Assembly: GCA_902802945.1 (NCBI GenBank)
Contig: CADCOC010000027.1
Span: 1 to 57,379, forward strand
Reading direction: 5' to 3'
Length of the DNA stretch: 57,379 nucleotides
Source of the DNA: an uncultured bacterium
Lineage (GTDB): Bacteria; Verrucomicrobiota; Kiritimatiellia; RFP12; UBA1067
Shown: in pieces, positions 8,782-44,645 of the stretch
Layout: every line of letters starts with the position of its first letter
Numbering within the stretch: the first letter of the stretch is position 1
Made by a program: the position numbers and the translations under genes
The notes under the pieces: model-generated
Database searches by the model: none
What the model was told of the DNA's origin: nothing
What the model saw: the letters and a program-made list of their open reading frames with translations, nothing else

Positions 8782-8796
8782 TGCGCACACCCTCCC

Positions 8797-11634: not shown

Positions 11635-11645
11635 ACATCCTCCTC

Positions 11646-13703: not shown

Positions 13704-13715
13704 TGATTGTCCTCC

Positions 13716-16700: not shown

Positions 16701-17930
16701 GAAAGAATTAAGAATTTGGTGATCTGGTTTTAGTATTTTGGGGAATGCGTGGTTGTTTAAGAAAATTGGCTCGAAAATTTTCCGGGGCTGTTCCGCTTGT
16801 TTATGAATCGGCAGCAGCTCAAGAATTCTGTCATCATAAAACACGCGATTCTCTCGTTGGCCTATCGCAACCATAACGGGAAATGAATCCGCGACTAATG
16901 TCGTGATCTTGCTCACGAGTCCGTTATTGTGCGGCTCCCCTTCGGTAATCGTCTCGCGTGCAGGATTTAGCTTGAAAGGACCATGCACGAGAAACTTCAA
17001 TCCATTATCTTGTTGTGTGGGGAAAAAGCAGAATGTCGTAAAGCCACTACAAGCCCTAACCCTTTTGTCCTCCGCCCCTAACATATACCCAATACAATAC
17101 TTTTCCAATGGGCTTTCTCCACGCGAAAAGATCAGAATTCTATCGTCATGAGTGGTAGTTTCATCTTCTATTCTAAGATTTCTGACCTCCTTAACATCCA
17201 TTGGATCAATACCATCAACGGAAACCCTGTCCCATTTCTTGAGGATCTCCACTGAGTATGATCCCGAACATCCGTCTTCACAAGCATAAGAGACTCTCTC
17301 CAATGTTCGGAGAAAAAGAGTTGGCATAACAAGATTTCGCAGCTTCTCCTTAATTTCCGTGTAGGCTTCCGTTCGTGATGGCACTTTATAGGCTTCATTA
17401 CCAGTTGATTTACGATTAAAATAAAAAACAAAGACCGTCCAACCTGGTTTACGATCTGGATAATTTTGCGACTCCCAATATGGGACGATATAATTTTTAA
17501 TTGAAAACATGAATTCATCATCATAGATGAAAGGCGTCTCAGTATATCGAAACACAGACTTGAACCCTACACCAAACTTTCCGATGGCATTGCCGCCCTT
17601 AGTGCTTTTTGCTACGGCTGTAATTGAATTCAACGACCCCAACCTACCTTGACTAAAGTCTTCGCGCTCGGACGTGACAGGTGTTATCGAAAAATGGACC
17701 GTCCCGTTATGTCGGAAAACAAGGCAATCTTTCTTCAGCTCGAACCGTGCTTCTGTAGCTTTCGAATCATCCGCGTTCTGGATAACTTCATAGATAAAAT
17801 GCGCTTTCTCTGAGTACTTCTCAACCTGCTCGTCCCAGATACCTTCTGTCGCGAAAGACTTTGGTACAGCTTTAAGACGATCTTCATGGAGCGCGGTAAA
17901 TAACCTTTTGATCTCTTCTCTATTCATCAT
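13716..17930 (-). CDS. GHKL ATPase fused to DUF262, putative defence protein
   Basis: 1404 residues. Start ATG 17930 (or 17927) follows AAGGA-like sequence. Residues 42-130 carry a GHKL/HSP90-type ATP site: FIYEVIQNADDSKAT (N-box, as in sacsin-like proteins) and IGKFGVGFKSVF (G-box). A long unrecognised middle follows. From about residue 960 a DUF262 domain appears: IPNLRIPDYQRPYKW, YRVGTIVLNKKK, then DIVDGQQRTITF at about 1038 and SQNTRGRPLAPHDLLKAY. No DUF1524 histidine motif is evident at the C-terminus, so it may be a sensor or switch rather than a nuclease. The next gene supplies a second DUF262 with DUF1524. I know of sacsin-like ATPases and DUF262 proteins separately in defence islands; this fusion I do not recognise as a named system. 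Confidence 0.85.
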   Translation of the reverse strand: MMNREEIKRLFTALHEDRLKAVPKSFATEGIWDEQVEKYSEKAHFIYEVIQNADDSKATEARFELKKDCLVFRHNGTVHFSITPVTSEREDFSQGRLGSLNSITAVAKSTKGGNAIGKFGVGFKSVFRYTETPFIYDDEFMFSIKNYIVPYWESQNYPDRKPGWTVFVFYFNRKSTGNEAYKVPSRTEAYTEIKEKLRNLVMPTLFLRTLERVSYACEDGCSGSYSVEILKKWDRVSVDGIDPMDVKEVRNLRIEDETTTHDDRILIFSRGESPLEKYCIGYMLGAEDKRVRACSGFTTFCFFPTQQDNGLKFLVHGPFKLNPARETITEGEPHNNGLVSKITTLVADSFPVMVAIGQRENRVFYDDRILELLPIHKQAEQPRKIFEPIFLNNHAFPKILKPDHQILNSFISRAVLPADDGHYVKKEFAFFAETDVLRRTFPNVILAALVDKAEATWIFPRYNEQRVREYDGGKAFLRECIQHWVDQQFVLEKLTRKFIAERADEWLQSCYDFVLNGEKRKWGLFAQKPIFKTVDGTAVPAVNNAGERCLFLPNAEGRAVQGFQTVKPLLVCDPDSPASRYLRELGITRPTPKDEILSMIGELNKASFDDHIAAFQLIFEGLRTAVNQADRRDIMLRLSECTWIVSRQSGRKTANELYFESELLRNYFEPLSMGDYLDVEIYRNNVQEGLRDEVVLFFSELGVSKWPRLKVTSLSKGDFDEGYMQTREAWKEPTSYRVNDETWEEFEIDGLRKLILTATRTDIKVWRGQALVIWEILRNLLSTAATNLFPDGQHNYFKNSSKSEGFSNYLLYLLRTIPWLCSTNGQLLSPASVKDGSLAIDFTRDSDADRKVRKLLGVKEDILSSEDDEILKIVRDLRNGGRSNDEVKGLLTCGMSTMGVEKPGYGKNDIEMEVRKRVSKLVDAEQDDPYLDLGEEFEECLKGALKYDKTPPEVGAENVMKVLDYLAIPNLRIPDYQRPYKWTRRSVLELLSDIDKMVIEKCKEDNVEPSMRPYRVGTIVLNKKKDENDDQEYYDIVDGQQRTITFTLLALGMGLNLGHISNSKFYPALSQSLESQRNLHNNMVYICEYLKSRTDGNTDYLEMLKKVLAESLEVVVICVETQEEAFQLFDSQNTRGRPLAPHDLLKAYHLRLMKAPKGASKEEKKKFEEKETKQVSDWENLDSNVIGGLFQDILYPIYRWSRKEKSNAFSTKDIYVFKGVPLGYKDKYGYVDRVCVTGTHFQIGDDFTPGECFFEYVKHYLEWKREIKKLLARAEYASVKTVIESYNSPYARNLFYAVLMAYFDRFGFDIPTEDVRRTVVKLCLWAYSVCLDLAYFGAKTPNKYAIGLPDGNDRYSNQKAMFYLIRNAVFHTDVAKIAVEHSKREDEQFTGERVALQKALKELK

Positions 17931-26640: not shown

Positions 26641-26725
26641 TGGTGCCCCGAGGGGGATTCGGACCCCCACGCCTTTCGGCCCTTGGATTTTAAGTCCAGG
26701 TCGTCTGCCATTCCGACACCGGGGC
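26641..26725 (-). tRNA. tRNA-Leu (anticodon TAA)
   Basis: Complete cloverleaf of 85 bases with encoded CCA. Acceptor GCCCCGG pairs with TCGGGGC; anticodon loop CTTAAAA gives TAA, which reads UUA and UUG. A long variable arm typical of tRNA-Leu is present (AGGGCCGAAAGGCGT region), and the T-loop reads GTCCGAATC, where TTCGA is usual. This slight T-loop change compared with the neighbouring tRNA-Leu may reflect drift. Confidence 0.93.
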
Positions 26726-26746
26726 TTCAGCCTCGCCCGCTATGAA

Positions 26747-26831
26747 TGGTGCCCCGAGGGGGAGTCGAACCCCCACGCCTTTCGGCCCGTGGATTTTGAG
26801 TCCAGGTCGTCTGCCATTCCGACACCGGGGC
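26747..26831 (-). tRNA. tRNA-Leu (anticodon CAA)
   Basis: 85 bases with encoded CCA, nearly identical to the tRNA-Leu 21 bases away. Anticodon loop CTCAAAA gives CAA, reading UUG. The T-loop is canonical (GGTTCGACT). The two are a tandem duplicate that has diverged at the anticodon, so together they serve the UUR leucine codons. A third copy survives only as a 3' fragment at 20.6 kb. Confidence 0.94.
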
Positions 26832-29046: not shown

Positions 29047-31230
29047 TCAGCCCGCGAAGCCGATGGCGGCGGAGTGGTCGCCGTCTTTCTTGACGGCGCA
29101 CTCCTCCTTCAGGGCCGCGATGCGGTCGAGGTTCGTGACGGCGTCGCCGAGGTAGAACTGCTCCTGGCGCACGGTACGGAAGTCGCCGGGCGCGAGGTTG
29201 CGGAGCGCCTTCAGCTCGGCGAACTCGTCGTCAGTGAGCGTAGCCTTGAACATGCGCTCGAAGAAGGACTTCTTCCCGGCGTCGTCGAGATAGCCGAACT
29301 CCAGCTTGAACGTGAAGCGGCGCATCGTGGCCGGGTCGAGGTTCTTCGAGAAGTTCGTCGCGGCCACCATGATGCCGTCGAAGTTCTCCATCTGCTGGAG
29401 GAGCTCGTTCACCTGGGTGATTTCCCAGCTGTGTCCGGCGTTCGAGCGGTCCTGGAGGAGGCCGTCAACCTCGTCGAAGAAGAGGATGGCGTGCTCGGCC
29501 TCGGCGCGGCGGAACGCCTTGGCGATGTTCTTCTCGGATTCGCCCACGTACATTCCGAGGATGTCGCTGCCCTTCACGACCACGACCCGGCGGTCGAGCT
29601 CCTTGCCGAGGTACTTGACGAACTCAGTCTTGCCCGTACCGGGAGGCCCGAAGAGTAGGATGTTCATACGGGGCTTGTCCTCGGACTCCGCGCCGAAGCC
29701 GGCGTCGAGGTAGTTGCGCGCGGCCTTCACGACGCGGTCGAGGCCGACCTTGCCCTTGATGCTGAGGCCCTCGAGCGAATAGTCCTTCGCGGGGAGGAAC
29801 GCGTTCGCATCCTTCACGCCCATGAGCTTGCAGTGGGGCTTCATCAGTGTGGCGACAAGCTCGTCCACCTTCTCGGACGCGGGCGCCATGCGCTTCACAT
29901 TCGAGAGCACGGTGGAGATGCCGCCCGCGCTCGTCTCGTACTTCGCAGCGTACTCCTCGATTTTCGTCTCGGGGATGAGCGCCTCCAGGCCGTGTTTCGC
30001 CACCTGGTTGCGCCAGATGGCAACGCGCTGTCCGTTGTTCAGACGCTCGAAGCAGATGGAGTAGTCGAAGCGCCGACGGACGGACTCGTCCATCTCGCGC
30101 GCCGGGGCATTGGAAATCCACACGGCAGGAACACGCATCTCGTCGAGGATGGTGTTCATCACGCCCTTCTCCGTGGACTTCCCGCCGGTGTCGAAGCCAA
30201 AGAGGCCGAAGAGACCGAACCCGCACGAGCTGCCGCGCAGGAGTTCGTCCGCCTCGTCCACAATCATGAGGCTTTCCGCAGGGTCCTCCTGCGTGTTGCA
30301 CACCTGGATGCCCATCATGCGCGCCTCGGACTTCATGTTCCGTCCGTCCTCGTCGCCCTGGCGGACCTCCCAGGCCGTACGCCCGAGCTCCTTCGCGAGG
30401 GAGCGGGCGAAAGAGGTCTTGCCCGTACCGGGTGCCCCGTAGAGGAGGATGTTGCACTTCCCGCCGCTTGCGGCAATCATGCGCTTGAGGACCTCGCCGT
30501 CCTTCGCGGAGAGGTCGCCGTAGAATTTCCAGGGAAGGACGTCCTTATCCTCGCTCTTCGCGTAGAAGCGGCGCTCGATGGTCTCGTCGGACGTGCCGTC
30601 CATGAACCCGCCCAGCGTCCGGCGGCTGAAGTCGTAGTCGCCGTCGAGGAGGCAGAACTTGAGGAGCGTCCCCTTCGGCGACAGGGCCTTCACCACCTCG
30701 TCGTACGAGCGGTCAAGCGCCATCGCGTAGTAGAGGGGCTTCTCGCGGTCCTCCACGCGGCACGGCCAGCTGAAGCACGTCTGGTCGCGCACGTAGGCGA
30801 GCGTGAGGATGTCGGCCTCGAGCGCGTTCAGCTTGAGGACGCGCACCAGCTCCGCGAAGCGGCGCGAGACGATGTCGGCGCCCTTCTCCGCGCTGTCCGC
30901 CTCCATGTACTCGCGCGCCGCGTCGAGGACCGCCCGACACTTGTCGCGAGTATCTTCGTTGTTCCAGAGCGCGCAGAACACGTCGTCCAGCGCGTCCTCT
31001 AGGTCGAGACGGCATGCACGCGACTTCGCGTGCTTCATCTCCTCAAGCTCCTCCGGCGTGTAGGCCGCCTCAATAAGCTCCACGCCCTTGTCGTGGTCGA
31101 AGCAGTTGCGCATGATGTCGAAGAAGTCGTCGTCACGGCAGTCGTCCTTATAGTTCTGGACCATGTTGCCCCAGTACTTCAGGAGTTTGCGGAACAGGAA
31201 GTTCTGCGGAACCTGCTTGAATTTCGCCAT
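29047..31230 (-). CDS. double AAA+ ATPase
   Basis: 727 residues. Two AAA+ modules: the first has YGAPGTGKTSFARSLAKELG at about residue 263 and LMIVDEADELLRG; the second has FGPPGTGKTEFVKYLGKELD at about 530, KGSDILGMYVGESEKNI (pore-loop region) and ILFFDEVDGLLQDR, ATNFSKNLDPATMRRF (arginine-finger side). Both Walker sites look active. The N-terminal 250 residues are helical and unrecognised. This resembles Cdc48/SpoVK-type unfoldases used for protein remodelling or, in several accessory systems, as regulators. Start ATG 31230 with AAAGGA upstream. A small acidic gene ends 29 bases before it, and ClpP follows. Confidence 0.85.
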   Translation of the reverse strand: MAKFKQVPQNFLFRKLLKYWGNMVQNYKDDCRDDDFFDIMRNCFDHDKGVELIEAAYTPEELEEMKHAKSRACRLDLEDALDDVFCALWNNEDTRDKCRAVLDAAREYMEADSAEKGADIVSRRFAELVRVLKLNALEADILTLAYVRDQTCFSWPCRVEDREKPLYYAMALDRSYDEVVKALSPKGTLLKFCLLDGDYDFSRRTLGGFMDGTSDETIERRFYAKSEDKDVLPWKFYGDLSAKDGEVLKRMIAASGGKCNILLYGAPGTGKTSFARSLAKELGRTAWEVRQGDEDGRNMKSEARMMGIQVCNTQEDPAESLMIVDEADELLRGSSCGFGLFGLFGFDTGGKSTEKGVMNTILDEMRVPAVWISNAPAREMDESVRRRFDYSICFERLNNGQRVAIWRNQVAKHGLEALIPETKIEEYAAKYETSAGGISTVLSNVKRMAPASEKVDELVATLMKPHCKLMGVKDANAFLPAKDYSLEGLSIKGKVGLDRVVKAARNYLDAGFGAESEDKPRMNILLFGPPGTGKTEFVKYLGKELDRRVVVVKGSDILGMYVGESEKNIAKAFRRAEAEHAILFFDEVDGLLQDRSNAGHSWEITQVNELLQQMENFDGIMVAATNFSKNLDPATMRRFTFKLEFGYLDDAGKKSFFERMFKATLTDDEFAELKALRNLAPGDFRTVRQEQFYLGDAVTNLDRIAALKEECAVKKDGDHSAAIGFAG

Positions 31231-31259
31231 TTTTCTCTTTCCTTTCGTTGTTATTAAAA

Positions 31260-31571
31260 TCAGAGGCGCACGCTGAAGAATTCGGACGCCGACATGACAC
31301 CATCGTCATCGTCCTCGTCATCGGCCGCGTCCGCGTCGCCGTCGGACGCCGGGGGCGTCTCCTTCTCCTCGGCACGGTCGGCGAGAATCTCCAGCGCACG
31401 CGCCTTCGTCACGCCGTAGATGCGCATCACCATCTTTACCTTGATTTCAGCGAAGAGGTCGTTTGCAGACTTCTTCCCGCGGCCCCGTCCCTTGCGGACA
31501 GGCGCCTTCTTCTCGTACGCAAGTTCGCCGAAGAGCTCTTCGGCGGACATCAGTTCTTCATCGTTGTTCAC
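31260..31571 (-). CDS. small charged protein with three SAx[DE][LF]F motifs
   Basis: 103 residues from GTG 31571, decided by GGAAGGA upstream. The motif appears as SAEELF (9-14), SANDLF (35-40) and SASEFF (94-99, next to the C-terminus). Between them are a basic patch (KKAPVRKGRGRGKK) and an acidic tract rich in Asp before the last motif. Not recognised as a family. It is followed by the double-AAA+ gene, so it may be an adaptor or substrate that presents the motif to a partner. The 62-aa protein at 1.4 kb carries the same motif. Confidence 0.68.
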   Translation of the reverse strand: MNNDEELMSAEELFGELAYEKKAPVRKGRGRGKKSANDLFAEIKVKMVMRIYGVTKARALEILADRAEEKETPPASDGDADAADDEDDDDGVMSASEFFSVRL

Positions 31572-31690
31572 TTTTTCGTTCCTTCCGTATTTCTGTTTCG
31601 ATTTTCTTAATGCGTTGTCATCCACATTCTCTAGAAGCAATAACTGTACCAACGTCACACCCTTACAAACAACAAGATTTTTCTGATCTG

Positions 31691-31719
31691 ATTGTCGACA
31701 TCTGACTGATGGTGGTCAA
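31691..31719 (-). promoter_or_regulatory. possible sigma-70-type promoter for the 31.57-kb operon
   Basis: The minus strand shows TTGACC, 17 bases, then GACAAT, about 120 bases upstream of the GTG at 31571. Both hexamers match the consensus at four or five of six positions. Candidate only. Confidence 0.3.
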
Positions 31720-31767
31720 ATTTTGAGCGATTACTTGACAGCAGTAACATTGCTTCGTTTTGCCTGA

Positions 31768-31783
31768 CTATACTTTAGTATAG
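31768..31783. promoter_or_regulatory. 16-bp perfect palindrome, possible operator
   Basis: CTATACTTTAGTATAG is a perfect dyad in the gap between the sigma-like gene (stop at 31835) and the operon starting at 31571. The length and symmetry fit a dimeric repressor site. No regulator can be assigned. The rest of 31572-31834 shows no gene. Confidence 0.4.
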
Positions 31784-31834
31784 CTGCCTATCCAAAAACA
31801 TCCTCCTAAATCGCTATGCCACACCGCCATTTCG

Positions 31835-32587
31835 TTATGCTCCAATCCTCCACAGCTTCTCTTCGGCGCGGATCCAGCCGCGCTTGAACGCCGTGCGTCC
31901 GTGCTTGACGAGCTTCTCTTTCACCCTGCACACGATGATGTAGAGATGGCTGCGATTACCCTTCAGCAGGTCGTCCGCGACATGCTGCGCGTCCTCTCCG
32001 TCGAGGACGGTGCGGATAAACACATCCCTGTCGCGGTCGCTAACACCATATTCGCCGCAGACAAGGTCCACCATCTCCCGGACCGCCATGCAGCGAATTT
32101 TCTCGCTCAGATGCTCGATCGGCGACTTGGCGTCCTGATTCCGAACCTCCTCCCTCGCCACCAGGTACTGGGTCTGACGCCGGATGTTGCGGAGACGCTC
32201 CGCGCGGGGACGCTCTCCGAGCGTGCGGTCGGCAAGCGTCGCCGAGTAGGCGTCGCGCAGCTCCTTGTGCGTGTTGCCGGCCCACGCCCACTTCGCCTCG
32301 CGCTCGTTCCTGTGGCTCAGAAAAGAACGCGCGTGCATCTGCACGAACCCGACCCACTGCGCCTCTGTCTTAGGTTCAAGCGCCTCCTCAAGACGATGGA
32401 CGGGATCGAGCCCCGCAATCTTTATGACCGCACTCTGAACTGCGTCTTCGCAGTCCTGCCTGTTGCCAGACCGCCAAAGCGAGTTGACGATCTTTGGACC
32501 GTGCTTCCAAAGGAGCACGCCCCATTCCCCGAGCGTGGGGATGTACGCGATGCTGTCGCTTGCTGCGTGTGTATGTTTGCTTGTCAT
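31835..32587 (-). CDS. ECF-like sigma-70 family protein
   Basis: 250 residues; ATG 32587 with AAAGGA upstream. Region 2-like sequence near the N-terminus (KIVNSLWRSGNRQDCEDAVQ then VIKIAG) and region 4-like helix-turn-helix near the C-terminus (SDRDRDVFIRTVLDGEDAQH, VADDLLKGNRSHLYIIVCRV). Somewhat longer than a typical ECF sigma factor, with an extra helical linker. It would direct RNA polymerase to a special set of promoters. Targets are not visible. It is divergent from the RtcR-type gene across 389 bases. The insert in the aspartyl-protease copy B resembles its region 4. Confidence 0.7.
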   Translation of the reverse strand: MTSKHTHAASDSIAYIPTLGEWGVLLWKHGPKIVNSLWRSGNRQDCEDAVQSAVIKIAGLDPVHRLEEALEPKTEAQWVGFVQMHARSFLSHRNEREAKWAWAGNTHKELRDAYSATLADRTLGERPRAERLRNIRRQTQYLVAREEVRNQDAKSPIEHLSEKIRCMAVREMVDLVCGEYGVSDRDRDVFIRTVLDGEDAQHVADDLLKGNRSHLYIIVCRVKEKLVKHGRTAFKRGWIRAEEKLWRIGA

Positions 32588-32862
32588 AATGATCCTTTGT
32601 TGTTGGAGGTTCATTTCTATATGCGGACGCAAAAAGTTGGTTGGCCAGACAGTTTTATGGACTAATGGAAATGCTTTTTCCTGATGGAAAGAATTTCGGT
32701 TCCTCCCTTGCCCGTGACCAGTTATTTTGATACAATATCAACCGCAAGCCCTTTCTTGCTTTCGCTATTGGGAGTTTAGGAGATTGGGAGACTTGGAGAA
32801 AATCCTCGAAAAGGCTCACTAAGGCGTTGTCCCAAAATATGTTGAACACAAAAGTAATGTAT

Positions 32863-32976: not shown

Positions 32977-34872
32977 ATGGAAAAGAAGGCCATCAAGAAA
33001 AACATTTTAATCTCTTATTTCGGATACGAGCATGACCAGCTTGAATACAAGGTGCTAGACAGGACATTCCTCGCCTCTTTCGGGAAAGACGCAAGGACTA
33101 GAGGGTATCTCTCGAGCCTGAGTCCGAAAGACATCAAGAGGACGGACATCTGGCGTCCTTCTGTCGCGCTCGCCTCCTACCCTGACCTAAAGTTCGACGA
33201 TTACTATCTTCTCTACAGCGGACTCAAGGGCTCCATGTTGAAAACCTTTAATGAAGTCGTGGAAGACATCAAGGCGTTACGGCCCGAGGTGAACCTGCAC
33301 ATAGAGGAGATGGCGTTCAAATCACCGTGGGACATGGTGAGCGTGTTCACGAACCTTTACAAGTTTGCCGAAGCCCACGCCTCGGAATTCGGCGCAGAAG
33401 ATACCATGTGTTATGTGAATTGCAACCACGGCACGATGCAGATCAGAGAGTCCCTGTTCATGCTCAGCCAGGAAGGCAAGATTCCCGGCTTGCGAATATT
33501 ACCGTCTCCATGGCACGACAATACAAAACGCGACTACCGGACCCCGGTGGGAAGCTATGCGAAAGACGATCCATCAGACTTCAACGCAGCTTATCGCAAG
33601 CTTTCCAGCGCCACGAAAAGGCAAGCGAAAGGCAAAGGCCTGCTGGAAGGAATGTTCATCGACAAGAGCAACACGGAATTCTTGGATCTGCTCGACCGGA
33701 TACTCTTCGTGGCGCAACGTACAAAGGAGCCGATACTCTTCACCGGACCCACTGGCAGCGGCAAATCGCATCTAGCCCAGAACATCGCAAAGGCAAAGGG
33801 GTTGAAGGATAAATTCGTATCCGTCAACTGCGCAACATTGGGTGGCGACCCGGGAATCATCAAAAGCGAGCTGTTCGGACACGACAGAGGTGACTTCACG
33901 GGTGCGATCAGTACGTGCGACGGAAAGCTGCAACAGGCTAACGGGGGAATCCTCTTCCTCGATGAGATTGCCGAACTTCCCCTCGACTCCCAGGCGATGC
34001 TCCTGACGGCCATCGAGACCAAGAAGTTTAGGCGTCCGCATTCGACGGTGGACATACAATGCGACTTCATGCTCATCTGCGGCACCAACAAGGATCTGTG
34101 GGAAGAAGTCAAGGCCAAGCGATTCCGCCTGGATCTGCTGGAGCGCATCAACACCTGGCATTTCCACCTCCCAGGCCTCGCGGAAAAAGAACGCCCCGGC
34201 TATGCCGCAAGGCGGAAAGACATCGCCCTCAATTGCCAACAGGTATTGAATGAGTACAATAAAAAGTATTCCTCGCATCTTGAATTCGCTACCGACGCAT
34301 TAAGGCGCTTCATCGAATATGCAGAAGCAGACACCACCGAATGGAAGGGCAACTTCCGTGAATTCAACGCCATGATCTTCAGAATGGCGACACTCGCAGA
34401 CGGTCTTCAGATTGAGTTACATGACGTCGAACGGGAAATCAAATACGCCGAGGCCGAACAAAAATCATACAAGACCGACGACAATGTTTCGACAATAGCG
34501 GCCAACACCCCTACAATTACAACGGAGCAAGATAGACATCCAACCGCGTCGCAAACCATTCATACGCCAACCCCAACCTCTACCCTTCCCGACGCCTCCT
34601 GCAAATTCGAGTTCCTGCGCGAACTGCTTGGCGAGAAGTACGCCGAGCTCCGCCTGGATGAACTCGCCCAACTTGCCTTCGTCGCCTCGGTCTGCGCGGA
34701 CGCGAAGAACCAGGCGGACGCCAGCCGACGCCTCCGCATCAATCAGAACGACTCAAAGGACGGTTCCCCGCAACTCTTCAAGTACCTGTACCATTTGGGT
34801 TTGAACTTCGACAAGGTCAAGTCCTTTGCGCGCGGGCTCAAGCCCTCTGATTCGTCTCAAGTGCGCAGATAG
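32977..34872 (+). CDS. rtcR: RtcR-type CARF/sigma-54-dependent activator
   Basis: 631 residues, start after AGGAGG (MEKKAIKKNILISYFG). The N-terminal 190 residues match the RtcR/CARF-like sensor fold with NCNHGTMQIRESLFML. The central AAA+ domain has TGPTGSGKSHLAQN (about residue 257), a GDFTGA loop at about 306 in place of GAFTGA, and GGILFLDEIAELPLDSQ. RtcR senses RNA ends made by damage and switches on the RNA repair operon rtcBA through sigma-54. No rtcB or rtcA is in this window. The DNA-binding C-terminus is present but weakly recognisable. Its end overlaps the end of the convergent helicase gene by 16 bases. Confidence 0.85.
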   Translation: MEKKAIKKNILISYFGYEHDQLEYKVLDRTFLASFGKDARTRGYLSSLSPKDIKRTDIWRPSVALASYPDLKFDDYYLLYSGLKGSMLKTFNEVVEDIKALRPEVNLHIEEMAFKSPWDMVSVFTNLYKFAEAHASEFGAEDTMCYVNCNHGTMQIRESLFMLSQEGKIPGLRILPSPWHDNTKRDYRTPVGSYAKDDPSDFNAAYRKLSSATKRQAKGKGLLEGMFIDKSNTEFLDLLDRILFVAQRTKEPILFTGPTGSGKSHLAQNIAKAKGLKDKFVSVNCATLGGDPGIIKSELFGHDRGDFTGAISTCDGKLQQANGGILFLDEIAELPLDSQAMLLTAIETKKFRRPHSTVDIQCDFMLICGTNKDLWEEVKAKRFRLDLLERINTWHFHLPGLAEKERPGYAARRKDIALNCQQVLNEYNKKYSSHLEFATDALRRFIEYAEADTTEWKGNFREFNAMIFRMATLADGLQIELHDVEREIKYAEAEQKSYKTDDNVSTIAANTPTITTEQDRHPTASQTIHTPTPTSTLPDASCKFEFLRELLGEKYAELRLDELAQLAFVASVCADAKNQADASRRLRINQNDSKDGSPQLFKYLYHLGLNFDKVKSFARGLKPSDSSQVRR

Positions 34873-37699: not shown

Positions 37700-38464
37700 C
37701 TACTCGGTGAAAACGCTAGCCAAAGGTAGCGAAGCATGCCCCCAGACCAAACGACAATTCTTGCAATAGGCGTGGATGTTCCCCGTGTCTGCCTTTTTCG
37801 ACGGTTCTGCCTTCTTAGAACGAAAGTTGGCGCAGAAATCTGACGTAACAAAGCCCGTCTGCGTCATTGTTTTGTGATTTCCTCTAAACGCTGCCGGACT
37901 TTCAAGAACCTCATTTCCTTCACTCTGCAGCCACTTCGCCACAGCCTCGTAGAACGCAAACTGCTTGCGAACGGCTTCTAGAATCTTGTGCGCCTCCGAA
38001 TCAAACCCATTGGGACGATATCCCAACAGCGGGTTGCGAGGAGGAATACACGCCCATCGCCCCGGTGCCATCTCGACAATTCTGATCTCGTAACTACGAA
38101 GGATAGAATCGAGCGGCGACACCTCCTCGCCGTTTGGTGCCGCATACGCGCCAGAAGAATCGACTTCATCCCGGATTTCGTCGTCATCAATGAAATCCAC
38201 ATCCGAGTCGTAGTCACCCTCTGCGGCATCCGCAATTTCAGCAACATTCTCTTCTTCTACGTCGGTCTCGACAACAATCCGGAAACTGGCGATCATCGCC
38301 TGCAAAATCTGTACTTGAGTGGCACAATCCGCGCGCAAAAACGTCGATGCCTGTATCCGTGTGGACAGTTCAACCTTGGCTTCCTGCTCATGTCTGGTGG
38401 AGACATCCATTCGATTAGACGGCTGCACGATTGTCGCCATCTGCAATCCAAAACCTAAAGCCAT
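37700..38464 (-). CDS. hypothetical protein coupled to fused RNA polymerase
   Basis: 254 residues; ATG 38464 follows the RNA polymerase stop by two bases, so it is almost certainly co-translated. N-terminal 80 residues are helical (QVQILQAMIASFRIVVE), then an acidic tract rich in Asp and Glu (residues about 85-105), then a basic domain with a Cys-containing end (SDFCANFRSKK, IHAYCKNCRLVWGH), which could bind zinc. No family recognised. An acidic middle and a zinc-like end fit a polymerase-associated factor, but that is inference from position. Confidence 0.7.
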   Translation of the reverse strand: MALGFGLQMATIVQPSNRMDVSTRHEQEAKVELSTRIQASTFLRADCATQVQILQAMIASFRIVVETDVEEENVAEIADAAEGDYDSDVDFIDDDEIRDEVDSSGAYAAPNGEEVSPLDSILRSYEIRIVEMAPGRWACIPPRNPLLGYRPNGFDSEAHKILEAVRKQFAFYEAVAKWLQSEGNEVLESPAAFRGNHKTMTQTGFVTSDFCANFRSKKAEPSKKADTGNIHAYCKNCRLVWGHASLPLASVFTE

Positions 38465-38466
38465 GG

Positions 38467-41400
38467 TCACGCTCCCGCTGCAAAACTGTTGAACATCACC
38501 TGCGCCGACGGCGAGGACAGCGGGATGTCCCGCATTTCGCCACTCAGTAATTTCAAGATCGTCTCCTTGTTTGCACGGCGCGCGACCGATTCCATGTCCT
38601 TGCCTTCGTCCACTTTCTTCAACGCGCCGTTGAGGGATTTTGTCCCGTAACCAACGAGAACGCGCCACAAGAGCTGGACATGCCGCGGATCCAGATCACG
38701 GTACGGAGTTATCGCGCCGTCCTCCCCGCACAGACATTTGTAGAATTCATCGTATGTTTTAGCCTTCTTACCGCTCAGGATGAGCGCGCGCACAAACTCG
38801 ATGTCCACTTGGCTCTTCCCCGCATGGGCGCTCTTCATCGAAAGTTGCGTGCCGCGTTCGCCGATCGACTGCGCGGCGATCAATCCCGCCGGGTACCCAA
38901 CTTCTGGCAAAGTGCCGTCCGACAAAGCCCCGTAGCACGCCGCGCAGATGCCAGTTTCGCAACCACAGTTGAGTATCGAACGCTTGCCGCCATCCGGTGT
39001 CTTGCACTTCTTGCACGTAATCGTCACTGGACGCAGGGCATAGACAAGACAACGCGTGAGATCGCCCGCCTTGCCGGTGTTGAGCTTCTTGTCGCACATC
39101 GAAGCGCGAGCGTTGAACGACGACCAGAAGATGTCCTCCCACGACATGCCGCCGACGAGCGAGCCCTGAATATCGAATTTCCGTTTCACCTCTTCGGACG
39201 GCACAAACCCCAGCTTGCCGGTCGCAAGTAGACCGCGAGGATTCGTGAACTGTTTGATCTGCTTTGCACCATTTGCCCCTGAGTTGACCATATCCGCCGC
39301 GAAACCGTTTTTCCCGTCATACACCACAAGGTCGTAGTAACCGAACGAGACACCCTCTTCCGTACATTTCTCGAACGCCGCACGCGCATCCTTCAAGACG
39401 GATTCGGCTTCGCCCTGTTTACAATGCTCTTCCAATCGCTTCTTCGCGGCACCGGAATCGCGCGCGCAGACGAGATATGCGCCCATCACGAAGTCTCGGT
39501 CGTAATTCGGGGTGATCTGTCCGTTCCCCGCCGAAAAGAGATTCGCGGACGGCGCCAGACGCGGCAGCGCCTCCTGTGCAGCGTCGGAAAGCGGCAGGTA
39601 ACCAGCCATCTCGTCGCCGTCAAAATCGGCCCCGAACCCCTTGCATGAAAGCGGCTGCAAACGGAACACCTCGCCGTCTGCGGGCTTTAGGACCTTCACC
39701 TTGAAGGCCTGCATGCTGTATTTGTGGAGAGACGGCTGCCGATTCATGAGCATCCAGAGCGGATCATGTTCAAGGTAGGTTTCAAGCGCCTGCACTTTTT
39801 CTGTGATCGTCGGCACCCCTCCACGCTTAGGCGAGCGCCAGCTGAATCCTGCGGCTGTCGCACCGTGGGACGACAGCGGATGTCCGTCAGCCGTTTCGCC
39901 GGCCACACGGTCCGCCAGGAGTTCCCAAAGGATAGACGCCGGAACGCCGACCTCGTCGAACGCAAGATCCGGCCCCGGAGTAATCACCAAGCGACACGAA
40001 CGGTCCACGCGCCGTCCGAGTCCCTCCCGTCTCACGAGCCCGTGTTTTCCGCAGCATGCGTCACGCAATATCTGAAACACGGTCGCGACCGCCTTCTCGA
40101 TCTGCGTCAACGCCTTCGTCTTTTCTTCTTCCGTCTGCGCCTTAGCATACCGGTCACACGCGGCGACGATGCTCCCATACCCGAACGGATCCTCCTCGCC
40201 TTCGTATCCCACGCGGTACCGGAGCGGCAGGACGGGGACGTAGCGCAGCTTCGGCTGATTAGACAAATTCTTGCCCGTCAACGCTTTCGCGGGATAGTCG
40301 ATCGGCTCCGGCAATTCGATCACGCCCCACTTTTCTTCTTCAGCGCACACGAATGCCTCGTTAAGCGAACCGAACATCGCCGGATCGCACACGCCTCCTT
40401 CGGCCATCTCGTTTTGCTCATTTGCAGCCTTGAGAAGGAAGCGCTCGCCCGGCTTACTCGCACTACACAATTCGCACGGACACAGCACGAGCGCGTCTCC
40501 GATGCTTTCCGCCTGCTTGTCCGACGTCTTGAGGCACATCCTCCGAAGTACCTCGCCCGCATTCACCTTCCTTTTGATGAAACAACGCACATCGCCCACG
40601 CCGTCAATGCCAAGTGCAGAAGTCTTCACCTCCAACGACAAAGTTGTGGCCGAGCCCCCTTTTGTTCCCCAAATCGGCAGTACCTCTAGGCAATCCTCCC
40701 GACTGGGACAACGGGCGTCTCGCCCGTTGCAGGCACCCGAAACGCGCATCCAATAATTGCCATTGCTTTCTTCCAGCGGTCCCTTGATCGTTACGCCAAA
40801 AAGTGACAGCAACGACGCAAGGCTCAGCGTATTCCGCTTGTCGCCCCCATTCCACGTAAAACGCATTCCACCGAACGCAAGCCGTGCGGAATCCTTCGGG
40901 CAGCGGAACTGTGCCGAATGGACCGCTACCGCAGACGCCTTTCCGATTGTCCGTCCCTTGCGATTCTGCTCCTCATTGAGACCGATCCGTTTGAGCAATT
41001 CGTTATCCGACATCCGCGAAAACGACACGGTCTTCTTTTTCGCGTTGACATCCATCTTGATCAGCATGGCCGCAAGATGGGCGGACAAGACTTGGGAGAA
41101 TCCAGTCTGGTCGAGTGCGGGCTTGCCCGCCCCCTTGACGGCGACGGCATCGGAGTTGCGAAGAAGGTCCGCGATGATCGGCTCCGATCCGGGATAGGCG
41201 GAAAGCGCCCACATTTCCATCTCGCCAACGCGTTGCCCGCCGCCGATGAGCCGCCCGTGCGCGGCCTGTCCCGTGGCGCAGGAATACAACGCGTCCTTTC
41301 CGCCGCGGCGCGCCTGCGCCTTCAACGCGGGGATGTGGTGGAGGCGGAAGAAATGCTGATACCCCACCACGATGGGCGATGCCGTCGTCACCTTGCGTCC

Positions 41401-43410
41401 GTCGGGCAGCGTCCAGTGAAGATGCGCCTTGCCGCATTCATCAAGTCCCGTCTCTTTGAGCAGACGCTGGACCTTCTCGTGGTCGAGCGCGCCGCAACAC
41501 GGCGCGCCCGCCGGTCCGACGGTCCCGTCCTTCAGCACGTCCGCATCGGTCTTTCCGTTGTGAAACAGCCATCCCAGATGCGTCTCCAGCAGCTGGCCGG
41601 GGTTCATGCGCGAGAGGACGCCATGCGGGTTCAAGAGAATGTCAACCGTCACTGTCATGCCATCGGGAAGCTTCAGTTTCGGCATTTCCTTCGCAGGCAA
41701 CACCTTGGAGACGACGCCCTTGTTGCCGTGGCGTCCCATCAACTTGTCACCCGGCTCCAGGGCGAACGTGCGCGCAATGCGGTACTTCAGGCGGCCTACG
41801 AATCCCGGATCGCGGTTGAGCGGCTTCTCCTTGATTTCAGGCGGGTATTCAATCTGCACGAGCTTCGCGGGGGCGGCGTCGACATACCGGATCGTATGGG
41901 TCTGTTCCTTGCCGTTCGCAATCTTCTTGAATTCCGCAATGGCCGTACCCTCACGCAGAGGTGCCCCCGCCGAGAGGATTTTGGTACACGTCCAGCCCGG
42001 ATCAATGTCGAGCGCGTAGTCCTTCTCTTCAGTAACGGCCATTTCTTTCACAATCGCGTCGCTCACCACGACCGCGTCGTCGAGGTTCCAGCCATACCAG
42101 GGGATGTACGCGACAAGCAGGTCGCGTCCGATCTTCAGCTCGCCGCCGTCCGAGCATGTCGGACACAGCCCCGCGCGCTCCAGCGGACGCATAAATTCGA
42201 CAAGCCCCGCTTCGCCGCCGGACTTCACGCACGGTGCTTCCGCCCCGCTCACGGGCACGCCCTGGCGCATGTTCTTCGCGCCCATCATGCTGCGCGCGTC
42301 GTCGTTGTGGTTCAGGAACGGAATCAGCGATGTGCACCAGCTCACGTGCGTTGAGCACTGGGACAACGGGCGTCCCGCCCGTTGTGGCCGCGACAAGCGC
42401 GGCCCTCCCGCACTGGGACAACGGGCGTCTCGCCCGTTGCCTTCTGCCGCGACGATCTGTCCCGTCTCATCCACCCACGCCCCACGCGCGAGCTGTAGCT
42501 GGATACCCACCATCTCGGACTCGGGGCTCTCGATCGGGCAGATGCGCCCTTCGAACGAGGGGTGGTTCTGTCGGAATTCGGCAGGCAGAAACCCGACACG
42601 GCTTCGGCTCACCTTGTAGCGCTTGATGCCGCAGATGCGTCCGGCCGCCTCGAGAATGTTATCAGGACGGATCACGTCAAACCCGTTGAACCGCCGTTCA
42701 CCAATCGACGAAACAGGCACAAGCTCCCCCGCCAAATCACCCCAGCTATCTCGCGTTCCATCCTTCAAGACAAAGAAACGATAGTAAAGTCGCAAAATAC
42801 GGTTGCGCAGCCAAACAGGGAACGTCACCGCCATGCGGTGGCCCAAGTCATCGGCATCATAAGTTTCTATATTGTCCTGATTCGATTGCGCCCATTCCTT
42901 CAAGTCGGCGTAATCTAGTACCGCGTCATAGACGCCCGGAAAAAACTTTGCCCACCAATGGACGAAGGCAATGTCGTACTGATCTGACTTGGAGAGCTTT
43001 TCTCCACCGATGCGGATGAACCGTCCGTCCGGCAACCCCAGACGAAGCTCCAGCTCCTTGCCATTGGGCACGCGCACCTTGCGCAGACCCGGCATTTCAC
43101 CGAGCCAGGAACTCCAGACGAGCCGCTGGGGCGCGTCCTTGTTTTCGGCGCCGGTGCCGCGCATCACGAACACGCCGTGATACGGGAGGGAAATGCCAAA
43201 CTCGCGCGAGTCACCGTCCGAGAAGGAGATGCAGAACCGTCCCGTGAGGTCCACGTTGTTCGCATACGCGAATTTCGCGTCATCAGCAGTGGGAAGGATG
43301 AGCTTGACCTTATCCACGTCCGGTGCCACCTTCCGCAGGCAGTCCGTTGCGGATTGCCGCCAGGTTTCAAGCGTCTCCGCGTCATCGTCTTTGAACATCA
43401 GCCAATTCAT
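38467..43410 (-). CDS. fused beta-beta' RNA polymerase, compact and divergent
   Basis: 1647 residues in one chain, beta part first. Beta motifs: GRICPIESPES (288-298), SLIPFLNHNDDARSMMG (361-377), LLVAYIPWYGWNLDDAVVVS (431-450), GDKLMGRHGNKG (554-565, with both lysines that match E. coli K1065/K1073), LSRMNPGQLLETHLGW, and GGQRVGEMEMWALSAY. Beta' motifs: GVCDPAMFG, KWGVIELPEP, LGRRVDRSCRLVITPGP (1131-1147), MNRQPSLHKYSMQAF, GADFDGDEMA (1260-1269, metal aspartates D1262, D1264, D1266), a gap-free 28-residue bridge helix (1430-1457), a second zinc site with six cysteines (1466-1492), and a trigger loop GTQLSMKSAH (M1525, H1529 kept). The N-terminal beta' zinc ribbon, most beta lobes, and the long beta' insertions are missing. 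Two in-frame palindromic inserts lie at 323-352 and 893-904. Start ATG 43410 follows the DUF445 stop closely; TTG 43416 is the alternative. Position 1260 is Gly where E. coli has N458. Confidence 0.93.
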   Translation of the reverse strand: MNWLMFKDDDAETLETWRQSATDCLRKVAPDVDKVKLILPTADDAKFAYANNVDLTGRFCISFSDGDSREFGISLPYHGVFVMRGTGAENKDAPQRLVWSSWLGEMPGLRKVRVPNGKELELRLGLPDGRFIRIGGEKLSKSDQYDIAFVHWWAKFFPGVYDAVLDYADLKEWAQSNQDNIETYDADDLGHRMAVTFPVWLRNRILRLYYRFFVLKDGTRDSWGDLAGELVPVSSIGERRFNGFDVIRPDNILEAAGRICGIKRYKVSRSRVGFLPAEFRQNHPSFEGRICPIESPESEMVGIQLQLARGAWVDETGQIVAAEGNGRDARCPSAGGPRLSRPQRAGRPLSQCSTHVSWCTSLIPFLNHNDDARSMMGAKNMRQGVPVSGAEAPCVKSGGEAGLVEFMRPLERAGLCPTCSDGGELKIGRDLLVAYIPWYGWNLDDAVVVSDAIVKEMAVTEEKDYALDIDPGWTCTKILSAGAPLREGTAIAEFKKIANGKEQTHTIRYVDAAPAKLVQIEYPPEIKEKPLNRDPGFVGRLKYRIARTFALEPGDKLMGRHGNKGVVSKVLPAKEMPKLKLPDGMTVTVDILLNPHGVLSRMNPGQLLETHLGWLFHNGKTDADVLKDGTVGPAGAPCCGALDHEKVQRLLKETGLDECGKAHLHWTLPDGRKVTTASPIVVGYQHFFRLHHIPALKAQARRGGKDALYSCATGQAAHGRLIGGGQRVGEMEMWALSAYPGSEPIIADLLRNSDAVAVKGAGKPALDQTGFSQVLSAHLAAMLIKMDVNAKKKTVSFSRMSDNELLKRIGLNEEQNRKGRTIGKASAVAVHSAQFRCPKDSARLAFGGMRFTWNGGDKRNTLSLASLLSLFGVTIKGPLEESNGNYWMRVSGACNGRDARCPSREDCLEVLPIWGTKGGSATTLSLEVKTSALGIDGVGDVRCFIKRKVNAGEVLRRMCLKTSDKQAESIGDALVLCPCELCSASKPGERFLLKAANEQNEMAEGGVCDPAMFGSLNEAFVCAEEEKWGVIELPEPIDYPAKALTGKNLSNQPKLRYVPVLPLRYRVGYEGEEDPFGYGSIVAACDRYAKAQTEEEKTKALTQIEKAVATVFQILRDACCGKHGLVRREGLGRRVDRSCRLVITPGPDLAFDEVGVPASILWELLADRVAGETADGHPLSSHGATAAGFSWRSPKRGGVPTITEKVQALETYLEHDPLWMLMNRQPSLHKYSMQAFKVKVLKPADGEVFRLQPLSCKGFGADFDGDEMAGYLPLSDAAQEALPRLAPSANLFSAGNGQITPNYDRDFVMGAYLVCARDSGAAKKRLEEHCKQGEAESVLKDARAAFEKCTEEGVSFGYYDLVVYDGKNGFAADMVNSGANGAKQIKQFTNPRGLLATGKLGFVPSEEVKRKFDIQGSLVGGMSWEDIFWSSFNARASMCDKKLNTGKAGDLTRCLVYALRPVTITCKKCKTPDGGKRSILNCGCETGICAACYGALSDGTLPEVGYPAGLIAAQSIGERGTQLSMKSAHAGKSQVDIEFVRALILSGKKAKTYDEFYKCLCGEDGAITPYRDLDPRHVQLLWRVLVGYGTKSLNGALKKVDEGKDMESVARRANKETILKLLSGEMRDIPLSSPSAQVMFNSFAAGA
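40702..40730 (-). repeat. in-frame palindromic element, NGRDARCPS type (copy 1)
   Basis: ACTGGGACAACGGGCGTCTC followed by GCCCGTTGC on the plus strand; arms CAACGGGCG and CGCCCGTTG flank a short loop. Read on the minus strand in frame as NGRDARCPS, residues 895-903 of the fused RNA polymerase, in the junction between the beta and beta' parts. Matches the copy at 42412-42440 base for base. Confidence 0.88.
42357..42384 (-). repeat. palindromic element, NGRDARCPS type (copy 2, different frame)
   Basis: Same palindrome as copies at 40.7 and 42.4 kb with one base changed (GTCCCGC for GTCTCGC). In the RNA polymerase frame it reads QRAGRPLSQ rather than NGRDARCPS. It lies 27 bases from the next copy, separated by a different hairpin. 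Confidence 0.85.
42386..42404. repeat. GGCCGCG hairpin between two palindromes
   Basis: Arms GGCCGCG and CGCGGCC with loop ACAAG. The 14 bases GCGCGGCCCTCCCG (42397-42410) recur exactly at 52842-52855, next to the other in-frame palindrome family, so the elements share modules. Confidence 0.75.
42412..42440 (-). repeat. in-frame palindromic element, NGRDARCPS type (copy 3)
   Basis: 29 bases identical to copy 1 at 40702-40730. Read in frame as NGRDARCPS (residues 325-333). It sits in a loop just before the beta segment SLIPFLNHND, a region where bacterial beta subunits vary in length. Confidence 0.88.
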
Positions 43411-43412
43411 AA

Positions 43413-44645
43413 TCAAATCCGCGTCAGCAATTGGAGCGAACCAACTATTGCGCCTAGAATGAAGCCCAGCACCTGCACGGCGCAGAGATTCTCGGACATG
43501 AACTCGTCAAGCGTCTGGTGAAACGTCGCGACGGACATGCCGTCGACAGCTTCCGTTACGCGCTGTTCAAGCCGGAGCTTGTCGAGAATCGCCTGCTTGT
43601 TCTCGCCGATGAGCTGGGCGACCTTCACGCCGACCTTTGGCAGCACGCCCTTCTCAAGCTTTTCGCGCAGCATGTCGGAGGCGAATGCACGGTCGATGAG
43701 CGCGGGAACGTTCTCGCGGAGATACGTAGCAATGTAACGCTTGCCGCGTACCCTCATTTCGCGGATAATTCCGCCCATCACCTTCTGTCCTTCTTCGCCT
43801 TTCATCCACAGAGTGAGCTGGTCCGCGTATGCGAGAAGTTTCTCCCTCAACATCGTCTGAGTTGTCTCGCGCACCAGCCATCCGTCCAGCTTGGCCTTCA
43901 TGCTCTCATAATCGGCAAAGTTATTCATGACATAGTCCGTAATCGCATCCGCGCCTATGCCAAATGGGATCTTCTCGTTCAGTTTCTGCCGCAGGAAGGT
44001 GCGCAATTCACCGCGCACCTCCTCGATGATTCCGCCCGCGTTTTCGCGAAGTGCCTCAACCAGCTTTTCGACAATGAACCGCCGGGATCCCTCGCTCTTG
44101 ATTCGGGGCAGGATTCCCTCGTTCCATATCTTCGACCAGGTATCATCCGTCGCCAGGCTGTCAATGACGGCAAGGACCTGACGTTCCACGTAAGGCGACA
44201 CGAACTCGACGATCTCGGCTTCATGCTCAACAAGATACCGTTGAATCCAGTCGCGGAGCTGAGTCATCCGCCGCGTGTCGTTCACAAACGCCAGTACCTC
44301 ACCCTTCATCTCCTCGACGAGCGCATCGGGGTTGAGCAGTTTCTTCCCGACCATGTTGCCGAGCGAGACGGCCATTTCGCGTTTCTGCCTCGGGATAATA
44401 CCCTGGATGCGTCCGCCCAGATGCGGCTCGTACGGTCTGAACAGATACCAAAGCGCCAGCCAGTTCGTGATGTATCCGACGGCTCCCGCAAGCAATATCG
44501 GCATAAACCAGCCAAGATACCGGTCAATACCCGCCGCCGTATCCACAGAGATCAGCAGCCGCGCCACCACATAGATGACCTCAAGGCCCAGCACTATCCA
44601 GCTGAACCGGTTGAAAAACCTATCCCATGTTTTCCACGCATCCAT
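43413..44645 (-). CDS. DUF445 membrane-associated protein
   Basis: 410 residues; ATG 44645 with AGGTAGG upstream. N-terminal hydrophobic segments FSWIVLGLEVIYVVARLLI and WFMPILLAGAVGYITNWLAL, with the GYITNWLAL signature of DUF445; a C-terminal hydrophobic end (VQVLGFILGAIVGSLQLL) follows a long charged helical middle. The family is membrane-associated with unknown biochemical activity. Its stop overlaps the region just before the RNA polymerase start (TTGATTATG), so the two genes are coupled, an odd pairing for a polymerase. Confidence 0.85.
   Translation of the reverse strand: MDAWKTWDRFFNRFSWIVLGLEVIYVVARLLISVDTAAGIDRYLGWFMPILLAGAVGYITNWLALWYLFRPYEPHLGGRIQGIIPRQKREMAVSLGNMVGKKLLNPDALVEEMKGEVLAFVNDTRRMTQLRDWIQRYLVEHEAEIVEFVSPYVERQVLAVIDSLATDDTWSKIWNEGILPRIKSEGSRRFIVEKLVEALRENAGGIIEEVRGELRTFLRQKLNEKIPFGIGADAITDYVMNNFADYESMKAKLDGWLVRETTQTMLREKLLAYADQLTLWMKGEEGQKVMGGIIREMRVRGKRYIATYLRENVPALIDRAFASDMLREKLEKGVLPKVGVKVAQLIGENKQAILDKLRLEQRVTEAVDGMSVATFHQTLDEFMSENLCAVQVLGFILGAIVGSLQLLTRI

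What the first reader, a model, noticed from the sequence alone, without database searches (positions are those of the whole stretch)
38467..43410. A single-chain, compact beta-beta' RNA polymerase outside any rpoBC context
The sequence shows one unbroken frame holding recognisable beta motifs (GRICPIESPES, GDKLMGRHGNKG, GEMEMWALSAY) followed by beta' motifs (RVDRSCRLVI, ADFDGD, bridge helix, second zinc cluster, trigger loop). It is about 1647 residues, against about 2750 for E. coli beta plus beta'. Known natural fusions (Helicobacter, Wolbachia) are full-length, and minimal polymerases such as phage YonO or killer-plasmid ORF6 are much shorter. Here there are no rpl, rpsL or fusA neighbours; the neighbours are DUF445, an unknown gene, DUF932 and a helicase. 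It is best read as an accessory polymerase of unknown promoter choice. The beta' zinc ribbon and most sigma-contact features are reduced, so it may not use the housekeeping sigma.
Basis: partly seen in the sequence, partly recalled or inferred. Interest (0 to 1): 0.95.

Follow-up and report, generated by a model that had tools for sequence, protein, structure and literature searches.

The report
One-chain RNA polymerase with mini-sigma54
A bacterium, likely a gut Kiritimatiellae, carries besides its normal RNA polymerase a second one built as a single compact protein, and in the relatives checked its gene occurs together with a gene for a shrunken protein predicted to fold like sigma54; the two likely form a private transcription machine that would stay off until an ATP-driven activator switches it on.

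The parts
38467..43410 (-). single-chain beta-beta' RNA polymerase (about 1647 aa; TTG at 43416 also possible)
   Evidence: Pfam, hhalign to canonical beta E 5.9e-81 and beta' E 5e-71; D460/462/464, beta K1065/K1073, bridge helix and first half of the trigger helix kept
37700..38470 (-). mini-sigma54-like partner (256 aa, GTG overlapping the polymerase stop; ATG at 38464 possible): Region I hook, acidic linker, ELH-HTH; no core-binding domain, no RpoN box
   Evidence: AlphaFold model matches sigma54; homologous partners match RpoN by profile and one matches PF04552 weakly; coupling; co-occurrence
32977..34872 (+). RtcR-like CARF-AAA+-HTH activator (candidate gatekeeper), loop GDFTGA
   Evidence: PF06956 67 bits and PF00158 145 bits, above cut-off; PADLOC RtcR--CARF_AAA_HTH 376 bits; motif alignment
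43413..44645 (-). DUF445 protein; overlaps the TTG-start polymerase ORF by 4 bases; same place in near relatives L011 and L012
   Evidence: PF04286 88 bits
34857..36623 (-). DEAD/ResIII helicase, in near relatives
   Evidence: 5 distinct polymerase loci (L008-L012) plus L176 and L177
31700..31722 (-). inverted-repeat-like upstream element AATTTGAC-N8-GTCAGAT, possible activator site
   Evidence: similar sequence seen by eye in L008, L012, L014, L176
31636..31651 (-). -24/-12 sigma54-type promoter-like site TGGTACAGTTATTGCT
   Evidence: identical in L012 and L176; one-mismatch site before the same gene in L014
31260..31571 (-). small acidic-tailed protein gene following that promoter ('c25')
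29047..31230 (-). AAA ATPase with two P-loop stretches after c25
   Evidence: PF00004 149 bits

Best explanation
The gene at 38467-43410 encodes a second RNA polymerase, beta and beta' on one chain with the catalytic motifs intact, and it is predicted to work with the mini-sigma54-like protein encoded right behind it (37700-38470) as a private holoenzyme that would stay closed until an AAA+ activator, likely the nearby RtcR-like protein, remodels it with ATP. SHOWN by calls: the polymerase with its motifs; a separate housekeeping rpoBC; the partner gene directly behind it and its exact co-occurrence with the polymerase in the host's family; the partner's sigma54-like predicted fold; an AAA+ activator gene nearby. 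INFERRED: (1) the polymerase is catalytically active; (2) the mini-sigma54 binds this polymerase rather than rpoBC. It lacks the sigma54 core-binding domain, which in normal enzymes blocks the RNA exit channel where sigma70 region 4 would lie, and the polymerase aligns over only part of the flap tip, so the two look reduced together; (3) Region I and the ELH form the same ATP-removable gate as in sigma54; (4) in this window the RtcR-like CARF domain senses cleaved RNA, as Salmonella RtcR senses tRNA halves with cyclic phosphate, and the target genes belong to stress or defence.
Confidence: 0.6

Rival explanations
1. Polymerase and mini-sigma54 form a holoenzyme, but the RtcR-like protein is not its activator: RtcR works with the housekeeping rpoBC-sigma54 on the c25-AAA operon, and the private enzyme is switched by something else or is constitutive.
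For: RtcR module without polymerase in G023 and G015; identical -24/-12 site in G023; own genome has RpoN.
Against: An activator-type ATPase lies near the polymerase in 13 of 14 loci across distant lineages, with changing sensor parts and, in L017/L021/L023, directly behind the partner; Region I, the part activators act on, is kept in the partner's predicted fold.
Confidence: 0.22
2. The sigma54-like protein is an inhibitor or chaperone that holds the polymerase inactive, and the polymerase itself is the effector of a conflict system (for example unprimed or runaway RNA synthesis) released by the AAA+ protein.
For: Region I plus ELH is the inhibitory half of sigma54 (PMC7057263, passages); no RpoN box in the window type; conflict-type genes upstream in distant loci (TCAD9 in L023, HD-CE in L021, AAA_5 plus a below-cut-off PDDEXK_7 in L015 and L018).
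Against: The HTH part is kept; long versions (L017) extend into a region that aligns with the sigma54 C-terminal part.
Confidence: 0.1
3. The polymerase belongs to an integrated element (phage or island) and serves that element's late genes, like phage-encoded polymerases.
For: Patchy distribution (16 of 345 genomes); integrase next to it in L019 and in L153; phages with fused beta-beta' exist (L087-L091).
Against: Phage fused polymerases fall outside the clade; the viral-contig scan gave 5 loci, all of that other kind; no integrase or phage structural family among the Pfam hits of the 25 window proteins scanned.
Confidence: 0.06
4. Artefact or decayed pseudogene.
For: Short palindromic repeats inserted in the frame.
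Against: All three inserts keep the frame; 117 of 121 family proteins keep both active-site motifs; the gene is found on many contigs.
Confidence: 0.02

Closest known systems
Housekeeping bacterial RNA polymerase core (RpoB-RpoC), incl. natural RpoB-RpoC fusions
   Same: Same order of domains, catalytic triad, bridge helix, trigger helix, second zinc site
   Different: One chain of about 1650 aa instead of 2749 (E. coli beta plus beta'); zinc ribbon, rudder, SI1/SI2/SI3 and much of the flap tip not aligned; accessory to a normal rpoBC; separate deep branch
Sigma54 (RpoN)
   Same: Region I helices, acidic linker, ELH-HTH in the predicted fold
   Different: 256 aa vs 477 in E. coli; no room for the core-binding domain; no RpoN box in the window type; no Pfam match above cut-off
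RtcR and other sigma54 activators (bEBPs)
   Same: CARF-AAA+-HTH, Walker A/B
   Different: Not next to rtcBA (a second RtcR on C52 stands beside a gene that I recognise by eye as rtcB); GAFTGA reads GDFTGA; loop lost in 3 of 13 loci
YonO (SPbeta prophage) and crAss-like phage fused beta-beta' polymerases
   Same: Relatives of multisubunit polymerases on one chain (PMC5467207 and PMC7481178, passages read)
   Different: Those are described as phage or prophage proteins with very distant homology; this one aligns over 1009 columns with beta and beta' and comes with a sigma54-like partner. Not compared by sequence here
Phage multisubunit RNAPs (mReC lineage, jumbo phages)
   Same: Multisubunit-type polymerases outside the cellular rpoBC set
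   Different: The IMG/VR fused polymerases found here (2033-2511 aa; whether they are mReC was not tested) form their own clade

Membership tests
Multisubunit-type (two-barrel) DNA-dependent RNA polymerase | catalytic aspartate triad and beta active-site lysines | tested here: met
Multisubunit-type (two-barrel) DNA-dependent RNA polymerase | bridge helix and trigger helix | tested here: met
   bridge helix 32/32 columns, trigger helix N-part 28/28 aligned; C-terminal trigger helix not aligned
Multisubunit-type (two-barrel) DNA-dependent RNA polymerase | RNA synthesis on DNA | not testable with these tools
   needs biochemistry
Canonical RpoB-RpoC core enzyme | beta' N-terminal zinc ribbon | tested here: not met
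   motif in 0 of 121 family proteins, 27 of 29 rpoC controls
Canonical RpoB-RpoC core enzyme | groups with rpoBC of its host's relatives | tested here: not met
   SH-aLRT 100 branch separates them
Canonical RpoB-RpoC core enzyme | alpha subunits bound | not testable with these tools
   one rpoA match in the genome; use by this enzyme unknown
Sigma54 (RpoN) | Region I helical hook plus ELH-HTH | tested here: met
   by predicted structure only
Sigma54 (RpoN) | core-binding domain (E. coli about 120-250) | tested here: not met
   a mostly low-confidence acidic linker of about 60 residues lies between Region I and the part matching 269-405
Sigma54 (RpoN) | RpoN box / -24 binding domain | tested here: not met
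   window protein ends at the position of sigma54 405; long versions extend further but no RpoN box was seen by eye
Sigma54 (RpoN) | Pfam Sigma54 models above cut-off | tested here: not met
   1 of 13 members hits PF04552, 18.6 bits vs 22.8
Sigma54 activator of RtcR type | RtcR/CARF domain plus sigma54-interaction AAA+ domain | tested here: met
Sigma54 activator of RtcR type | GAFTGA loop | tested here: inconclusive
   GDFTGA in the window; 10 of 13 loci GAFTGA-like, 3 lost
YonO-like or crAss-like single-chain RNAP | sequence or tree grouping with them | not tested
   no such sequence was fetched

The most novel reading that the evidence does not exclude
A cellular, non-phage, self-contained second transcription system: a one-chain RNA polymerase plus a sigma54 stripped to its ATP-removable gate, fired by an RNA-damage-sensing CARF-AAA+ activator. 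It would be the smallest activator-gated transcription machine that I know of and would show that sigma54-type control can be cut down to gate and polymerase, with -24 recognition and the core-binding domain dispensable.
Probability: 0.45. Interest if true: 0.96.

Novelty: categorically new. Interest (0 to 1): 0.92.

Why it matters
Bacteria are taught as having one RNA polymerase core with exchangeable sigma factors. This locus points to a second, chromosomal polymerase with its own initiation factor, in a family large enough to study (7582 matches at E<=0.001 among 8000 scored candidates, canonical subunits possibly among them; members labelled Kiritimatiellae and Verrucomicrobia and one in the isolate Methylobacter psychrophilus Z-0021). 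It makes two open questions directly testable: what part of sigma54 is needed for ATP-gated promoter opening, and how far a multisubunit-type polymerase can be reduced and still work. The parts come from known superfamilies; the combination is what I could not find described. It also offers a compact orthogonal transcription system.

Tried and rejected
Phage origin: the viral-contig scan gave 5 loci, all of another fused type, outside the clade. Record searches: the window enzyme against plasmids, L023's enzyme against plasmids and phages: 0 records where one place covers 80% of the query in each; only 15 rows of each list were seen, mostly rpoBC. Descent from the host's own rpoBC: rejected by the tree. 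YonO-type minimal enzyme: rejected on size and on alignment with both subunits. Partner as sigma70/ECF or alpha-like protein: no Pfam support, and sigma54 chains lead both structure searches. I suspected gene 31835-32632 to be an ECF-like factor by eye; Pfam gives no support, dropped. Sigma54-type site in front of the polymerase operon: none with <=2 mismatches and GG/GC kept in window 28000-50000 apart from the one at 31636; the whole-window count of loose sites is at chance (19 vs 25 expected), so only the conserved site is used. DUF932: no match. PADLOC: polymerase and window partner match nothing at E<=0.001. Literature: searches listed no paper on this system; these were capped lists (for example 15 of 1,833, 15 of 150), of which titles and starts of abstracts were seen. 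Passages of PMC5467207, PMC7481178 (and its outline), PMC4679880, PMC7057263, PMC4012209 and PMC7790460 were read. Most subscription papers and bioRxiv are not held.

Recalled, not from a call: E. coli coordinates of flap tip, rudder, lid, SI1-SI3, bridge helix; the -24/-12 consensus; that Helicobacter and Wolbachia have fused rpoBC (also in the finding); killer-plasmid ORF6; that TCAD and HD-CE domains belong to conflict systems.

The tree left out L025, one canonical row with a short rpoC, and pairs that failed a length filter; L025 was added. L022 and L024, short contigs, were not used in the trees. P0192 was left out of the partner alignment (its length and Pfam domains differ); A3 holds 55 of the partner sequences, not all. 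Several partners scored were also in the model c2; the clean cases are the window-type loci (window, L008-L013: 66-94 bits) and L023 (26 bits, E 9.5e-7) against model c2d, which was built without them.

Full report
1. The observation. The frame lies on the minus strand, 38467-43416; relatives start at the ATG at 43410. Pfam finds beta domains (PF04565, PF00562, and PF04560 just below cut-off) followed by beta' domains (PF00623, PF04998). The genome, a draft of 300 contigs, has a separate rpoB (cut at a contig start) and rpoC on C98, one rpoA match and one rpoN above cut-off. Close named relatives are labelled Kiritimatiellae, Verrucomicrobia or Lentisphaerae, some from rumen or other gut samples, so the host is likely a gut Kiritimatiellae; this is inferred.

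2. The enzyme. Profile alignment to canonical subunits covers beta 512-1340 (530 columns) and beta' 238-962 (479 columns) with E 5.9e-81 and 5e-71. Kept: K1065 and K1073, D460/D462/D464, bridge helix, four cysteines of the second zinc site, first half of the trigger helix. Not aligned: zinc ribbon, rudder (2 of 19 columns), beta before 512 with SI1, most of SI2 and SI3; of the flap tip 12 of 30 columns align. The elements on both sides of the zinc ribbon align weakly to P0001 997-1044 (E 0.013, Prob 3%), as if the ribbon alone had been cut out. The beta' C-terminus is not aligned by this method. Of 121 proteins (query and the 120 listed of 7582 matches), 117 keep both active-site motifs; the four misses are P0027 and P0028 (fragments of 1227 and 1034 aa), P0075 and P0096.

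3. Lineage and spread. In a tree of 61 rows the 28 single-chain members plus L153 are one side of a branch (SH-aLRT 100) against canonical enzymes (those of the host's relatives included), fused canonical ones and phage fused ones; a 27-row mixture-model tree agrees. Long branches are present and the program warns of them, so placement inside the clade is unsure. 16 of 345 genomes of the class carry it at E<=1e-60, 14 of them in the window's own family. A draw of 387 genomes of the phylum has 12 matches; 5 are of this family by score (over 400 bits), 7 are canonical rpoB at 205-211 bits. One isolate, Methylobacter psychrophilus Z-0021, carries a distant member (L023).

4. The partner. The gene directly behind the polymerase (window 37700-38470) has a homologue at the same place in 16 of 16 loci (window, L008-L021, L023). 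Searched from 60 nt before the polymerase stop, the first possible start lies -10 to +15 nt from it in 15 of 16 (L020: +63): translational coupling is likely. A genome search at E<=1e-8 finds it in 14 of 114 genomes of the family, exactly the 14 with the polymerase at E<=1e-60 and none of the other 100; in G006, G011 and G529 the polymerase is a piece at a contig end. A matching of this kind by chance has odds of about 3e-18 if genomes were independent, which they are not.

6. The activator. A sigma54-activator-type ATPase is found in 13 of 16 loci; in L013 and L020 the contig ends, in L019 there is none within 10 kb. In L014-L016 and L018 it faces the partner; in L017, L021 and L023 it follows it in the same direction and shows no DNA-binding tail. 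In the window it is RtcR-like, separated from the partner by a helicase and the DUF932-like gene. PMC7790460 (passages) reports that the Salmonella RtcR CARF domain binds tRNA 5' halves ending in cyclic phosphate; PMC4012209 (passages) notes RtcR-like activators near restriction systems. The own genome has a second, stronger RtcR match on C52 (229 bits) next to a gene that I recognise by eye as rtcB.

7. Evidence that limits the claim. The RtcR-like gene of the window with c25, AAA gene, helicase and DUF932-like gene exists at 92% (G023) and 75% (G015, with an in-frame stop) identity in genomes without detected polymerase or partner; G023's contig ends 0.3 kb past its last match to the window, so the absence rests on the whole-genome searches. 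A -24/-12 site (TGGTACAGTTATTGCT) with an inverted-repeat-like element upstream stands before c25 in the window, L012 and G023, with variants of 1-3 mismatches in L014, L010 and L008 and none in L009 and G015. So this activator likely drives the c25-AAA operon with ordinary sigma54, whatever else it does. Three of 13 activators have lost the GAFTGA loop, which would fit a changed partner but does not show it; one of them, L014, keeps a good -24/-12 site.

8. Context. Upstream genes vary: DUF445 (window, L011, L012), AAA_5 plus a below-cut-off PDDEXK_7 pair (L015, L018), RecD-like helicase with PDDEXK (L016), TCAD9 (L023), HD-CE with a nucleoside hydrolase (L021), Tle1-like (L009). Several are of conflict or defence type, which is suggestive only.

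9. Verdict. A real, conserved, accessory single-chain RNA polymerase with a dedicated sigma54-like partner. Confidence: polymerase family and accessory status about 0.97; active enzyme about 0.85; partner related to sigma54 about 0.9; private holoenzyme about 0.75; gating by a nearby activator about 0.6, and by this very RtcR-like protein about 0.45.

Noticed in passing
window 40703-40728, 42358-42383, 42413-42438 (-): A palindromic repeat (AACGGGCG[A/G]GACGCCCGTTGTCCCA) sits three times, in frame, inside the polymerase gene and adds NGRDARCPS-like peptides that the 13 aligned relatives lack; 38 exact copies in the genome, 0 for the reversed control.
   Followed up: partly
L025 6787-12569: A Deltaproteobacteria contig carries another one-chain beta-beta' polymerase frame (1673-1732 aa, runs off the contig) directly behind an alpha-like gene (PF01000, PF01193); it falls outside the clade described here.
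   Followed up: partly
L027, L071, L039, L043, L079: Fused beta-beta' frames of 2043-2306 aa in Jettenia (L027), a Nitrospirae bin (L071), two Adlerbacteria bins and one unnamed bin; L027 and L071 branch apart from the canonical enzymes.
   Followed up: partly
L087-L091: IMG/VR phage contigs with single beta-beta' frames of 2033-2511 aa and conserved neighbours.
   Followed up: partly
L153 1297-14672: A clade member of 2023 aa lies near a family A DNA polymerase, a DUF3854 gene and an integrase, without detectable partner.
   Followed up: no
window 29047-32632: Module beside the RtcR-like activator: -24/-12 site, small acidic-tailed protein and double AAA ATPase, also present without the polymerase in two genomes; function unknown.
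   Followed up: partly
window 3419-17930: RecBCD-like genes and two GmrSD-type genes, one with a sacsin domain, in a row.
   Followed up: no
window 26641-26831: Two tRNA-Leu genes (TAA, CAA anticodons) in tandem, 94% alike.
   Followed up: no
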